Position numbers and translations under genes: made by a program
Shown: one piece after another, positions 35,392-60,232 of the stretch
How the letters are laid out: the number at the start of each line of letters is the position of its first letter
Position numbering within the stretch: the first letter of the stretch is position 1
DNA from: Acidiphilium iwatense
GTDB taxonomy: Bacteria > Pseudomonadota > Alphaproteobacteria > Acetobacterales > Acetobacteraceae
Assembly (NCBI RefSeq): GCF_021556475.1
Contig: NZ_JAKGBZ010000005.1
Location: forward strand, 62,001 to 126,000
Length of the DNA: 64,000 bases
Reading direction: 5' to 3'
Notes under the pieces: generated by a model
The model's database searches: none
Seen by the model: the letters and a program-made list of their open reading frames with translations, nothing else
What the model was told of the DNA's origin: nothing

Positions 35392-35407
35392 AATTTCACG
35401 TGACACA
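35392..35407. other. Degenerate parS-like sequence
   Basis: AATTTCACGTGACACA in the uvrC-Hint gap matches 13 of 16 positions of TGTTTCACGTGAAACA, including the full CACGTG core. It might be a weak ParB site or chance; the perfect copy is at 59362-59381. Confidence 0.2.
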
Positions 35408-55441: not shown

Positions 55442-57133
55442 CTAACTGACGGCGCGTTTATAGGTGCTCTTCGCGGCCTCCTCGGCGGCAAGCTCCTTGC
55501 GTGAGAATTTGCCCACCGAGGTTTTCGGGAGCGCGTCGCGGAATTCCAGCGCGGCCGGCATTTCGTGCTTGCCAAGCTTGTCGGCGAGAAAATCGCGGAG
55601 CGATTCAAAAGTGAATTCAGGGGCATCAGGCTTCAAGCTCACGAAAGCTTTGGCCGACTGCCCGCGATAATCATCGGGGATGCCGACCACGATGACCTCC
55701 GCGACATCCGGGTGTTCATAGATCGCGGATTCGATGACGGTCGGATAGACGTTGAACCCGCCGGACAGGATCATGTCTTTCTTGCGATCGACCAGGAACA
55801 CCATGCCATCGTCGTCGATCCAGCCGATATCGCCGGTCAGGAAATGCCCGTCGGCGAAACTGCGCGCGGTTTCCTCGGGATTGTTCCAGTAGCCCTTGAA
55901 CACGTTGGGCGCTTTGATGCGGATTTCGCCGGTTTCGCCATAGGGCAGAATGCGGGAGGGATCGTCGAGCGAAACCACATCCAGCTCGATCCCCGGCAGC
56001 GGCATTCCCGCCGAGCCGAGCTTGAAAATACCGTCGAGCAGATTGCCGGTTCCGGCCGAGGCGGTCTCGGTCATGCCCCAGCCGCCGCCGAGCCGCATTC
56101 CCGTCAAACGCTCAAAACGCTGGCCGATTTCCACCGGCAGGGGGGCGCCGCCGGAACCCACCAGTTTCAACGACGAGAGGTCGCGTCTATCGAGATCGGC
56201 GATATTGGCGAGCGCGATCCACATCGTCGGCACGCCGGGGAAATAGCTCGCCTTGTTGACTTCGATGTCGCGCAAAGTGGTCTCGGGGTCGAATTTCAGC
56301 CGAAGCAGCAATTCGCTGCCGCGCGAAAGCTGCAACAACAACAGCACGACCAGCGCATAGATGTGAAACAGCGGCAGCATGCAGATCGCGCGCAGTCTTT
56401 CGCCCGGCACGAAGCGTCCCTGGCCGTCGATGAACGCCTGATAGATCGCGACCGAGGCACGCAAGGTCGCGTGCGTATGCATCGCCCCTTTCGGAAGTCC
56501 CGTGGTGCCGCCGGTATATTGCAGAAGCGCCAGATCATCGGAATCGATGTCTGGAAGTAATGTATCCGAAATGCGCCCGGCTTCCCGCAGCGCCTGTATC
56601 GTGATGATGCGTGAATCATTCGTAGGAATCGGCGGATGCGGCATGCCCGGAATCGGCCCGAATTGTGCATCGTCGCCGACGATGATCCGGTCGATATGGC
56701 CGGTGTCGAGCAGTTTCCGCGCCATGCCGAGCATCGGTCCGATATTGGTACAAACCAGGGTGCGGGCGCCGGAATCATGCAGCTTATGGACAAGTTCGCG
56801 TTCGGCATCGAGTGGCGAGAGATGCACCACGACCAGCCCCGCCGTGAGTGCGCCAAAAAAACTGAACGGATGCCCCGGCGAGTTCGGCAGATAGAGCGCG
56901 ATACGGTCACCGCGCCGCAACCCGAGCGTGATCAACCCTTTGGCAACTTCATCGATCGCAACGCCAAGGAGCGAAAAGCTGATCTTGTGGCCGCGATAGT
57001 CCAGCGCCGGCTCCGGGCCGTAGGTTTCAATGGTCCGCGCGATCATCGCCGGAATGGTCTCGCGCGGAATCGTAACGTCCCAGGCAAGATCCGGAGGATA
57101 GTTCCGCTCCCAGGGGAACGGACGCCGGCTCAT
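55442..57133 (-). CDS. fadD: Long-chain fatty-acid--CoA ligase
   Basis: 563-residue AMP-forming ligase that activates fatty acids as CoA esters. P-loop LQYTGGTTGLPKGAMHTHAT, A5 motif LGGGWGMTETASAG, and the hinge region GDIGWIDDDGMVFLVDRKKDM followed by SGGFNVYPTVIESAIYEHPD; the catalytic Lys of the C-terminal domain is in LPKTSVGKFSRKEL. The start at 57133 overlaps the fadB stop (ATGA). Substrate range is not certain, but the operon context points to fatty acids. Confidence 0.93.
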   Translation of the reverse strand: MSRRPFPWERNYPPDLAWDVTIPRETIPAMIARTIETYGPEPALDYRGHKISFSLLGVAIDEVAKGLITLGLRRGDRIALYLPNSPGHPFSFFGALTAGLVVVHLSPLDAERELVHKLHDSGARTLVCTNIGPMLGMARKLLDTGHIDRIIVGDDAQFGPIPGMPHPPIPTNDSRIITIQALREAGRISDTLLPDIDSDDLALLQYTGGTTGLPKGAMHTHATLRASVAIYQAFIDGQGRFVPGERLRAICMLPLFHIYALVVLLLLQLSRGSELLLRLKFDPETTLRDIEVNKASYFPGVPTMWIALANIADLDRRDLSSLKLVGSGGAPLPVEIGQRFERLTGMRLGGGWGMTETASAGTGNLLDGIFKLGSAGMPLPGIELDVVSLDDPSRILPYGETGEIRIKAPNVFKGYWNNPEETARSFADGHFLTGDIGWIDDDGMVFLVDRKKDMILSGGFNVYPTVIESAIYEHPDVAEVIVVGIPDDYRGQSAKAFVSLKPDAPEFTFESLRDFLADKLGKHEMPAALEFRDALPKTSVGKFSRKELAAEEAAKSTYKRAVS

Positions 57134-59235
57134 TCGGCCGCTACCTTCGCCGCCTTGCCGAAATCGGCAAATCCCTTGCTTTCGCCGGCAAGCTGCCGCA
57201 GCAATGCGGACGGTGCGAGTCCGGCATCGCCGGTGGCCTTGGCATAATGGTCAAGCCGTTCGGCGATCTTGCTCAATCCCACAAGATCGGCGTGGAAACA
57301 TGGCCCGCCGCGCCACACCGGCCAGCCATAGCCATAGACCCAGACGACATCGATATCGGAGGGACGGATCGCGATGCCTTCCTCCAGGATGCGCGCGGCT
57401 TCGTTGATCATCGGATAGGTCATGCGTTCGAGAATTTCATCGTCGTCGATCTGACGCCGCATTATCCCAAGCCGAGCGGCGGTCTCGACGATGAGGGTTT
57501 CGACCTCGGGGTCCGGCGCCGGCGTGCGGCTACCGTTTTCATAAATATAGTAGCCGCGCCCGGTCTTCTGGCCGAAGCGGCCCTGTTCGCACAACGCATC
57601 CGAGATCGGCGCGGTGACGCCGCGATGCTTGCGGATGCGCCAGCCGACATCGAGTCCGGCCAGGTCGCCCATCGCGAACGGTCCCATCGGGAAGCCGAAC
57701 CTGGTCACCACGGCATCGATTTGCTGCGGCAACGCGCCCTCCAGCATCAGCCGCTCGCATTCGGTGGTGCGGCGCGCCAGCATCCGGTTGCCGACGAAGC
57801 CGTCGCAATTGCCGACCACCACGGGCACCTTGCCCATGGTCTTGCCGATGCCGATGGCCGTCGCGATCGCCTGATGCGAGGTGGCCTTGCCGCGCACGAT
57901 TTCCAGCAATTTCATCACATTGGCGGGCGAAAAGAAATGCATCCCCAGCACGTCGGCGGGCCGCTTTGTCGATTGCGCGATCGCATCGACATCGAGGGTA
58001 GAGGTGTTGGTGGCAAGCAGTGCACCTTGCCGGGCATGGGCATCGAGTTTCGCGAAAATCCGTTTTTTCAGGTCCATATCCTCGAATACCGCCTCGATGA
58101 CGATATCCGCCTCGGCGATGCGTGCCCAATCGGTCGTGCCGGAAAACAGCGCCATGCGCGTTTCGGTGGCGCCTTCCGGCAGTGCGCCGCGCTTGACCGA
58201 CACGTCATAGGTCTGGCGCACCCGGTCGAGCCCGCGGGTGAGAGCCTGCTCGTCGGTTTCGATGATGGTGACGGGAATGCCGGCATTGGCGAAATTCATC
58301 GCGATGCCGCCGCCCATGGTGCCGCCGCCGATCACCACGGCGCGGGAGATTTTCGCGGCTTTCACTTCGGGGAGCATTCCGGGGATTTTCTGCGCCTCGC
58401 GTTCGGCGAAGAAAACGTGGCGCTGCGCGCGCGACTGGTCACCCATCACCAGTTTCATGAACATGCCGCGTTCGGCGGCCAGCCCGTCCTCGAACGGAAG
58501 GGTGAAAGCGTTGCGCACCGATTGCACGCAGGCGGCGGGCGCCTCGACGCCCGCAAGACGTTTGGTGGCCTCGCTCGCGGCCTTGTCGAAGCTGGACGGA
58601 TCGGCCTTCGCGGCGGTGATTTTTTCGCTCCGGTCGCGGACTCGGACCAGTTTGCGGCCATCCGCCAGCATGGTTTTTGCGAAGTCGATGGCGCCAGGAA
58701 TCGGGTCGGCGACGATCGCGTCGATCAGCCCGTCGGCATGGGCGGCTTTGGCGCCGATCATTTTGCCTGAAACGATGGCGGCGACGGCTTTTTCCGGGCC
58801 GATCAGGCGCGGCAGGCGCTGGGTGCCCCCGGCGCCGGGGAGCAGGCCGAGCTTGACTTCGGGCAGACCCATTTTCGCATCCGCCGTCGCGACCCGGAAA
58901 TGACAGCCGAGCGAGAGTTCCAGCCCGCCGCCGAGCGTCGTGCCGAACAGGGCGGCGACGATGGGTTTGGTGGAATTGTCGAACCGCTCGATCACCTCGT
59001 GAAGGCCGGGATCGCGCGGCGGTTTGCCGAATTCGGTGATGTCCGCGCCGGCCGAGAAGGTGCGGCCCTTGCAGCCGAGAACGATGGCTTTGACCGCGCT
59101 GTCGGCTTCGGCGCGATCGAGGGCGGCGATCAGGCCATGGCGGACCGCATGGCCGAGTGCGTTGACCGGGGGATTGTCGATCGCGATTACCGCGATACCA
59201 TCGATTACATCATAATGAACCGCCGGATTGCTCAT
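57130..59235 (-). CDS. fadB: Bifunctional enoyl-CoA hydratase / 3-hydroxyacyl-CoA dehydrogenase
   Basis: 701-residue multifunctional enzyme of beta-oxidation. The N-terminal ~190 residues are crotonase-like (AIVLGCKGRTFSAGADITEF; LPEVKLGLLPGAGGTQRLPR with the catalytic Glu). From ~300 comes the NAD domain (VVIGGGTMGGGIAMNFANAG) and the dehydrogenase catalytic His in VLGMHFFSPANVMKLLEIVR, then the C-terminal helical domains (VWVYGYGWPVWRGGPCFHAD). First gene of the operon; promoter and parS lie upstream in 59236-59431. Confidence 0.95.
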   Translation of the reverse strand: MSNPAVHYDVIDGIAVIAIDNPPVNALGHAVRHGLIAALDRAEADSAVKAIVLGCKGRTFSAGADITEFGKPPRDPGLHEVIERFDNSTKPIVAALFGTTLGGGLELSLGCHFRVATADAKMGLPEVKLGLLPGAGGTQRLPRLIGPEKAVAAIVSGKMIGAKAAHADGLIDAIVADPIPGAIDFAKTMLADGRKLVRVRDRSEKITAAKADPSSFDKAASEATKRLAGVEAPAACVQSVRNAFTLPFEDGLAAERGMFMKLVMGDQSRAQRHVFFAEREAQKIPGMLPEVKAAKISRAVVIGGGTMGGGIAMNFANAGIPVTIIETDEQALTRGLDRVRQTYDVSVKRGALPEGATETRMALFSGTTDWARIAEADIVIEAVFEDMDLKKRIFAKLDAHARQGALLATNTSTLDVDAIAQSTKRPADVLGMHFFSPANVMKLLEIVRGKATSHQAIATAIGIGKTMGKVPVVVGNCDGFVGNRMLARRTTECERLMLEGALPQQIDAVVTRFGFPMGPFAMGDLAGLDVGWRIRKHRGVTAPISDALCEQGRFGQKTGRGYYIYENGSRTPAPDPEVETLIVETAARLGIMRRQIDDDEILERMTYPMINEAARILEEGIAIRPSDIDVVWVYGYGWPVWRGGPCFHADLVGLSKIAERLDHYAKATGDAGLAPSALLRQLAGESKGFADFGKAAKVAAE

Positions 59236-59343
59236 GTTTCCTCCTCGCGCGCCGGGCCAGGAGCCGGCACCATTCGTTAATCCTTTATCGCTTGCGACCG
59301 ATTGGGGCGCAAGCCCCCACGGCAGGCAGCATAAACTAAATAT

Positions 59344-59362
59344 ACGTTAATAATTTTAACGT
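59344..59362. repeat. Inverted repeat upstream of the beta-oxidation operon
   Basis: ACGTTAA-TAATT-TTAACGT: perfect 7-base arms around a 5-base loop, about 110 bases before the fadB start and touching the parS palindrome. Size and symmetry suit a TetR- or GntR-type operator for fatty-acid control; no FadR consensus is recognised. Confidence 0.35.
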
Positions 59363-59381
59363 TTGTTTCACGTGAAACAAA
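59362..59381. other. parS centromere site (ParB binding)
   Basis: TTTGTTTCACGTGAAACAAA is a perfect 20-base palindrome whose central 16 bases, TGTTTCACGTGAAACA (59364-59379), equal the bacterial parS consensus exactly. It lies in an intergenic, AT-rich block. ParB bound here loads SMC and spreads along DNA. parS sites cluster near oriC, so the window should be origin-proximal; smc is encoded about 50 kb away. parAB is not in the window. Confidence 0.85.
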
Positions 59382-59405
59382 AAATCTGTTTCGAGACTAT
59401 CCATG

Positions 59406-59432
59406 TTGATATTATATCGAAATTGATATTAT
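59406..59432. repeat. Direct repeat TTGATATTAT
   Basis: Two identical 10-base copies, 59406-59415 and 59423-59432, 17 bases apart in an A/T-rich stretch beside parS. The second reaches the stop region of the solute-binding gene. Iteron-like spacing is near 1.6 helical turns; the role is unknown and chance in A/T-rich DNA is possible. Confidence 0.3.
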
Positions 59433-60232
59433 TATGATTGCGGCCCCGATCCCATGATGGTTTTGACAAACCACGCAGCGATTGCGGGTCGGCGGGTGGG
59501 GGTTGATGTTATGAGAGGCTTGGAGGGCGCGGCGGAATTGACATAGGCAATCAATTTTTCGGCGGCCGCGCGGTGCTGGCCGGTCAGGGTTTTGGCCATG
59601 ACGATCGTGGTCTGGATAGCGTAGGCCGGTCGCGGAACAATCACGCGGAGAGATTTGTCGATTGTCCCGGCATAGATGGCTGCCGCGTCGGGTCGAACGA
59701 TGGCGAGCTGGATCGCACCGCTGCGCAGGGCGGCGAGGGTCGCGCGATCGGTGGCGTAGATGTGCAGGCCGTTCCGTTGCAGGGTTGCGATGAATCCCTT
59801 GCCTGCGGGCCAGCCGCCTGCACTGTCCAGCATGGCGGCGAGCACCGGATAATCGCTGACCGAGACAGAAGGGTCCGCCATGCCGATCGTGCCGCGATAG
59901 GCAGGTGCCGAGAGATCGGCCCAGCGCGCGGGCGGCGGGAAGGTTGTCGTGCCCGGCACGACGAAGACGGCGGCGGGTTGACCGGCGAACTGAGGCGAGA
60001 TCGGTCTGCCGGCGGTATTGACCCAGGCGAGGGACCAGCGCGGGTGACCCCGCTCGGCCGTGACGAGACGGACCGGAATCCCGGTCTTGCGGGTGAAGGA
60101 TTTTACGATGGCGGGTGCGCCGCGAAGCGGGGAATAAAAAACGAGGCCGGACTTGGTGGTGCCTGGCAGGAGCAAAAATATCGCGAACGCCACGACGACC
60201 AGCCCGACAGCCAGGGCGATAAGCTTGCGCAT
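59432..60232 (-). CDS. Extracellular solute-binding protein
   Basis: 266 residues. It has an N-terminal membrane anchor or signal (LIALAVGLVVVAFAIFLLLP) followed by a type II periplasmic binding fold: LVFYSPLRGAPAIVKSFTRK, TGIPVRLVTAERGHPRWSLA, ARWADLSAPAYRGTIGMADP and AIQLAIVRPDAAAIYAG. The pattern resembles iron(III)- or 2-aminoethylphosphonate-binding proteins (SBP_bac type), but no Tyr ligand set can be assigned. No permease or ATPase genes are adjacent; the next gene follows within 2 bases. Substrate unknown. Confidence 0.75.
   Translation of the reverse strand: MRKLIALAVGLVVVAFAIFLLLPGTTKSGLVFYSPLRGAPAIVKSFTRKTGIPVRLVTAERGHPRWSLAWVNTAGRPISPQFAGQPAAVFVVPGTTTFPPPARWADLSAPAYRGTIGMADPSVSVSDYPVLAAMLDSAGGWPAGKGFIATLQRNGLHIYATDRATLAALRSGAIQLAIVRPDAAAIYAGTIDKSLRVIVPRPAYAIQTTIVMAKTLTGQHRAAAEKLIAYVNSAAPSKPLITSTPTRRPAIAAWFVKTIMGSGPQS

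What the first reader, a model, noticed from the sequence alone, without database searches (positions are those of the whole stretch)
59362..59381. Perfect parS site in the beta-oxidation promoter region
The 20-base palindrome TTTGTTTCACGTGAAACAAA contains the exact 16-base parS consensus TGTTTCACGTGAAACA. It is intergenic and flanked by unusual A/T-rich repeats. A perfect 16-base match is very unlikely by chance in 64 kb of high-GC DNA. It implies this region is close to oriC and that the fad operon lies under ParB spreading.
Basis: partly seen in the sequence, partly recalled or inferred. Interest (0 to 1): 0.75.

Follow-up and report, generated by a model that had tools for sequence, protein, structure and literature searches.

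The report
Centromere site in a scattered repeat
The palindrome is a genuine-looking bacterial centromere (parS) site, but it is one of 14 perfect copies strewn over an Acidiphilium-like genome inside a roughly 70-base repeat, instead of marking the replication origin as such sites normally do.

Summary
In detail: window 59364-59379 is a perfect parS, far beyond chance. The inference "close to oriC" is not supported. The genome (Acidiphilium-like, 156 contigs) holds 14 perfect parS on 11 contigs plus one 1-mismatch copy; even with contigs packed optimally the 14 span 987 kb. In two relatives the fad genes lie about 1.07 and 1.31 Mb from the parS beside parAB. Of 297 Acetobacteraceae genomes the next highest count is 6.

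The copies form a dispersed element of about 70 bp. The 16-bp core carries 1 mismatch in 240 positions, the arms 216 in 750. A core-masked search found no convincing copy with arms kept and core lost. Of 13 intergenic copies, 9 lie between convergent genes (background 23 of 139). Some positions are shared with other species. A likely source is the canonical parS inside rsmG.

A similar pattern occurs elsewhere: one 2.75-Mb alphaproteobacterial contig has 18 perfect parS, 8 in a cluster and 10 scattered up to 1.29 Mb away.

Best reading: dispersed ParB-loading sites kept by purifying selection. Binding, loading and any effect on fad are untested. It sits badly with reports that extra parS is tolerated mainly near the native locus.

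The parts
59364..59379 (.). parS, TGTTTCACGTGAAACA, perfect
59362..59381 (.). 20-bp perfect palindrome around parS
59338..59363 (+). left ('B'-type) arm of the dispersed element, diverged
   Evidence: alignment A1
59380..59403 (+). right arm of the dispersed element, diverged; looks most like the canonical rsmG-side arm (by eye)
59398..59431 (+). two imperfect 17-nt A/T-rich direct repeats beside the element
59266..59299 (-). block upstream of fadJ conserved in relatives that lack the parS element there
57130..59235 (-). fadJ-like gene (enoyl-CoA hydratase / 3-hydroxyacyl-CoA dehydrogenase), first gene of a minus-strand beta-oxidation cluster
59432..60232 (-). solute-binding-protein-like gene on the other side of the element

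Best explanation
The site is a genuine parS, bound by the chromosomal ParB encoded on contig C146. It belongs to a family of 15 dispersed copies (14 perfect, 1 with one mismatch), each a roughly 70-bp element with parS at its centre, probably descended from the canonical parS inside the 5' end of rsmG. The copies lie far from one another, mostly in short gaps between convergent genes, and their 16-bp core is kept intact by selection while the arms drift. Inferred working: each copy is a separate loading gate where ParB closes into a CTP clamp, slides over neighbouring DNA and can recruit SMC, so that ParB acts at many chromosomal positions. Placement between convergent genes would spare promoters and shield the clamp from transcription. 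At the window copy, which lies upstream of fadJ, ParB may also damp fadJ transcription. Shown: sequence, copy number, dispersion over contigs, arm family, core conservation, context bias, shared positions. Inferred: ParB binding, SMC loading, benefit, effect on fad, origin from rsmG.
For: 14 perfect copies on 11 contigs plus one 1-mismatch copy, about 1.5e-4 expected genome-wide by composition. A chromosomal ParB with ParB_N, HTH_ParB and ParB_C domains, best solved match 6t1f, a chromosome-partitioning ParB. Core 1 mismatch of 240, arms 105 of 390 and 111 of 360. A core-masked model finds in this genome its 12 training copies and one 12.3-bit hit. 9 of 13 intergenic copies convergent against 23 of 139 background gaps, P 3e-5 binomial, 1e-4 Fisher (one search gave 25 of 165 with part of the window counted twice). 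Shared positions: C80b in three relatives; C102a, C24 and the window copy in one each. A separate case on one long contig, G439.
Against: No ParB binding data. Copies were found by their core, so conservation is partly ascertained; the core-masked search lessens but does not remove this: it scored 150 of 276 first-look candidates and did not itself recover the window, C24 or C46 copies. Contig order is unknown and relatives are rearranged, so distance to the origin is indirect. The 12 other genomes of the genus have 0-3 perfect copies, and G012 carries a decayed copy at the window position, so the sites are dispensable in related species.
Confidence: 0.66

Rival explanations
1. Selfish or neutral dispersed repeat (MITE-like) that happens to carry parS; the perfect cores reflect recent spread or ascertainment, not function.
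For: Discrete element with sharp borders, consistent arm polarity, C1, C131, C102a and C57 copies 89-96% alike, one copy in frame inside pdxA.
Against: Arms differ from consensus at 27-31% of positions while the core has 1 change in 240; positions shared across species show age. No autonomous partner was seen, but transposases were not searched for.
Confidence: 0.18
2. The palindrome is used by another factor or as a shared bidirectional terminator between convergent genes; likeness to parS is inherited but irrelevant.
For: Position just after stop codons of convergent genes, A- and T-rich ends, and 4 of 12 folds (of 10 copies) have z-scores below -3.
Against: The 12 folding z-scores run from -0.19 to -6.46; left-right pairing within a copy is no better overall than between copies; no terminator-like site at the window copy, the only copy scanned; a terminator does not need an exact 16-bp core; the C46 and C146 copies are inside genes.
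Confidence: 0.09
3. One reading: an ordinary origin-proximal parS cluster, with the window near oriC.
For: True contig order is unknown; the minimum span is 24% of the genome, close to the 20% ori domain quoted in PMC7022226.
Against: It would need all 11 contigs to abut. Flanking genes of 12 copies map 0 to 1541 kb from parS in G003, 9 of them beyond 300 kb (positions); fad genes 1.07 and 1.31 Mb away in two relatives.
Confidence: 0.07

Closest known systems
Chromosomal parS of the ParABS system (Caulobacter, Bacillus, Pseudomonas)
   Same: Identical 16-bp consensus; canonical copy in rsmG beside parAB; cognate ParB present.
   Different: Copies spread over at least 987 kb inside a repeat with related arms. 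[quoted passage not shown]
Ten parS sites of P. aeruginosa PAO1, four close to oriC (PMC4368675, start of abstract in a search listing)
   Same: More than one group of parS, some outside the main cluster.
   Different: Not described there, in what I saw, as a dispersed repeat; distances of the other six not checked here.
[quoted passage not shown] PMC7333895, passages read)
   Same: High number of parS.
   Different: Those sites are reported as near the origin.
P. [quoted passage not shown]
   Same: ParB contacts dispersed over a chromosome.
   Different: Half sites are heptamers bound without need of spreading; here full palindromes inside an element.
Noc binding sites of Firmicutes (sequence recalled)
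   Same: Dispersed sites of a ParB-family protein.
   Different: Different sequence; the only family hit over the ParB cut-off is the parAB-linked ParB, which scores 202.9 against the nucleoid_noc cut-off of 315.
Short palindromic repeats / MITEs (recalled class)
   Same: Short, dispersed, defined borders, loosely inverted ends (by eye).
   Different: Core is a perfect centromere site; no transposase or target duplication shown.

Membership tests
chromosomal parS site | 16-bp consensus TGTTTCACGTGAAACA | tested here: met
chromosomal parS site | cognate chromosomal ParB in the genome | tested here: met
   C146, 202.6 bits; all three ParB domains
chromosomal parS site | location in the origin domain, near parAB | tested here: inconclusive
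   met for the C146 copy; for the window copy the evidence leans against, from contigs and relatives, not from a closed genome
chromosomal parS site | bound by ParB in vivo or in vitro | not testable with these tools
   needs ChIP-seq or a binding assay
MITE / transposable repeat | discrete element with sharp borders, many copies | tested here: met
   mean pairwise identity is 0.45-0.99 within the element and 0.25-0.29 outside it, with 0.36 in a 10-bp border zone
MITE / transposable repeat | terminal inverted repeats, target duplication, transposase | tested here: inconclusive
   ends loosely inverted by eye; no target duplication established; transposases not searched
intrinsic bidirectional terminator | stable hairpin with T tract, pairing conserved | tested here: inconclusive
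   no covariation of arms, variable folding, none found at the window copy, others not scanned
Noc binding site | Noc consensus (recalled) and Noc protein | tested here: not met
   sequence is parS; only one ParB-family hit over cut-off, below the Noc cut-off

The most novel reading that the evidence does not exclude
A polycentric bacterial chromosome: parS has spread as a small element to about 15 insulated positions around the chromosome, each a working ParB (and SMC) loading gate, so that partition and folding start at many loci. Comparable states arose in other Alphaproteobacteria (18 perfect sites in G439, 35 in G658, 52 in G623).
Probability: 0.3. Interest if true: 0.88.

Novelty: new variant of a known kind. 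Interest (0 to 1): 0.63.

Why it matters
A review states that an extra parS is tolerable only in a region of about 600 kb around the native locus or origin in P. aeruginosa and Caulobacter, and asks what drives parS number and clustering (PMC7333895, passages read). The Caulobacter study behind it also saw some preference for ter and disfavour of mid-arms (PMC5815017, passages read). Genomes where perfect parS sits far from the canonical locus are natural exceptions in which that question can be tested, and they call for caution in using a parS hit as an origin marker. The element also suggests how centromere sites multiply: copying of the rsmG-internal parS with its flanks.

Tried and rejected
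Origin marker: not supported, from copy number and spread. Chance: rejected. A larger mobile element around each parS: similarity centred on the sites does not exceed about 80 bp in the flanks compared, of up to 20 kb. Copies with intact arms and lost core: sought with a core-masked model, none convincing in this genome, with 150 of 276 candidates scored. Terminator or hairpin: not well supported. Rearrangement breakpoints at parS: looked suggestive, but synteny with G003 is broken all along the window, so dropped. GC skew to place an origin: used only on the sampled G003 chromosome, where the minimum is near 3.0 Mb, at its parS, on a noisy curve. Dropped rows: C76 (2 mismatches, no arms) from all counts of copies; C46 and C146 (inside genes) from the convergent count; C24 and the window copy from the core-masked model.

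Literature: ten searches. In the titles and abstract starts listed I saw no paper on dispersed parS repeats, but several lists were capped (25 of 26, 12 of 17 and 12 of 82), and the main survey, Livny 2007, is not held, so earlier mention cannot be excluded.

Full report
OBSERVATION. The 20-bp palindrome and the 16-bp parS are exactly where reported. A perfect match is expected about 3e-6 times in 64 kb by base composition. The site is 128 bp from the fadJ start and 52 bp from the stop of a solute-binding-protein-like gene, both on the minus strand, so it lies in a tandem gap on the promoter side of fadJ.

ORGANISM. The nearest named fadJ relatives are Acidiphilium (81-83% identity). The window is C102:62001-126000 of a 4.16-Mb draft in 156 contigs. 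Relative G003 has a chromosome of 3,749,411 bp; from recall this is the length of A. multivorum AIU301.

COPY NUMBER AND SPREAD. The genome has 14 perfect parS on 11 contigs, one copy with 1 mismatch (C57) and one with 2 (C76). The 12 other genomes of the genus hold 0-3 perfect copies. Among 297 family genomes of at least 90% completeness this one has 14 and the next, G265, has 6 (read from the table). None of the 80 fadJ loci fetched from named genomes holds a parS in the stretch held. If all 11 contigs are chromosomal, packing them as tightly as possible still gives a span of 987 kb and a farthest site at least 494 kb from the canonical one. On the sampled G003 chromosome I placed 12 of the 15 copies by their nearest matching flank, often on one side only and for some (C73a, C79) with the other side matching elsewhere: 0 to 1541 kb from parS. 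The other 3 (window, C24, C135) had no firm anchor there. A whole-genome search then placed the window site: both sides are colinear at 321-332 kb in G003, 1.07 Mb from its parS. In G002 the fad side is at 2.17-2.18 Mb (1.31 Mb away) and the other side at 2.69 Mb (0.80 Mb away). These are proxies: the genomes are rearranged and the origin of this genome was not located.

THE CANONICAL COPY. The C146 copy lies inside the 5' end of rsmG, between mnmG and parA-parB. The ParB is a standard one. In the related species whose parAB locus was fetched the site beside it is single or a doublet 36-40 bp apart; G006 has two sites 2.3 kb apart. G008 and G011, both under 90% complete, show no perfect parS.

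THE ELEMENT. Aligned copies share about 26 bp on one side ('B' arm) and 24 bp on the other ('A' arm); outside about 70 bp similarity drops to background. Across 15 copies the core shows 1 mismatch in 240 positions; the arms show 105 in 390 and 111 in 360. Because the copies were found through the core, I built a model with the core masked: in this genome it returned 12 copies, all used to build it, and one marginal 12.3-bit hit (150 of 276 first-look candidates scored). It did not recover the window, C24 or C46 copies, which were not in its training set and have diverged arms. The full model adds only a weak degenerate hit on C92, 18 bits (150 of 289 candidates scored). The A arm resembles the DNA next to the canonical parS in rsmG of several species, which suggests origin by copying from there (judged by eye).

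CONTEXT. With gene calls from a simple codon model of my own, 13 intergenic copies fall 9 convergent, 3 tandem (window included) and 1 divergent. Other gaps of 20 bp or more in the same loci are 23 convergent of 139 (binomial 3e-5, Fisher 1e-4); one search gave 25 of 165, with part of the window counted twice. A few gene calls are weak (L017, L027, L031). C146 and C46 lie inside genes; C46 is in pdxA, in frame.

AGE. Positions are shared: C80b with G010 and G004 (perfect core) and G005 (symmetric variant TATTTCACGTGAAATA); C102a with G012 (1 mismatch); C24 with G010 (arm likeness and left neighbour gene); the window copy with G012, where a decayed core lies between the matching neighbours and fadJ is missing from that place. 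G003, G002 and four of the five closest named fadJ loci (L033, L034, L036, L037) show fadJ upstream sequence without the element in alignment; the fifth, L035, was not aligned but gave no match above chance. In G002 a weak 11.2-bit model match lies roughly 0.4 kb upstream of fadJ (L304:543-589, E 0.009) and may be a remnant; not resolved. In a tree of mnmG, parA and parB from 11 genomes of the genus this genome branches deep, but the two nodes that matter have 54% and 73% support. So dispersal is old in the genus; gain against loss at each place is not resolved.

OTHER LINEAGES. Of 388 class genomes of at least 97% completeness, 6 have 10 or more perfect copies: this one 14, G431 13, G439 18, G538 18, G658 35, G623 52 (read from the table). 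G439 has all 18 on a contig of 2,753,527 bp: 8 at 1812-1817 kb, one of them in an rsmG-like start (by eye), and 10 scattered. Taking the contig as a circle they lie 367 to 1290 kb from the cluster, and the largest empty stretch is 521 kb. Of the 10 scattered sites 5 carry the same flank TTTGTTCACGAAA (either side), 3 more resemble it, and 2 do not (by eye). G623 and G658 have many doublets 37 bp apart. Four of 52 G623 sites were read; they score 27-31 bits with the window-genome model, against about 14 for a bare parS, but L286 of G439 reaches 26.9 from bases next to the core, so likeness of arms between families is only a lead.

MECHANISM. Established for ParB (reviews, passages read): it loads at parS, spreads and recruits SMC. 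From this, each copy should load ParB. That the core alone is preserved argues that this is selected. In P. aeruginosa, ParB at two intergenic parS represses the gene downstream (PMC7022226, passage read), so damping of fadJ is possible. None of this was measured.

COMPARISON. Function: works like parS. Membership: consensus and ParB are met; origin location is inconclusive and leans against; binding is untestable here. Noc sites are not met; terminator is inconclusive. Novelty: a dispersed parS-centred repeat is a new variant of a known kind; ten searches of an open-access library, seen as listings, showed no description, and the main survey is not held. On rechecking, confidence was lowered slightly (0.68 to 0.66) for the capped candidate scoring and the split mapping in G002.

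Noticed in passing
L030:10551-10706 and similar stretches in L018, L020, L022, L027: A second dispersed repeat of about 160 bp; at L030 it lies at the rsmG-parA junction and the flanking matches to several relatives abut without it, so it looks like an insertion.
   Followed up: partly
G623 and G658 (unnamed, same class), e.g. L299-L302: 52 and 35 perfect parS per genome, many as doublets 37 bp apart on many contigs.
   Followed up: partly
G538 and its congeners (g206): Perfect parS counts from 2 to 18 within one genus, another possible recent spread.
   Followed up: no
L148:9950 (G004:C33) and L149:4213 (G005:C81): Symmetric variant TATTTCACGTGAAATA in two element copies of different species: both halves changed together, as if a two-fold binding site is kept.
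   Followed up: no
L012-L016: Five large open frames (681-805 aa) with a ParB-like domain below the family cut-off, on other contigs.
   Followed up: no
window 59266-59299: Block upstream of fadJ conserved in the seven sequences aligned, possibly a fad control site.
   Followed up: no
window 35392-35407: A 3-mismatch parS-like sequence, probably chance.
   Followed up: no
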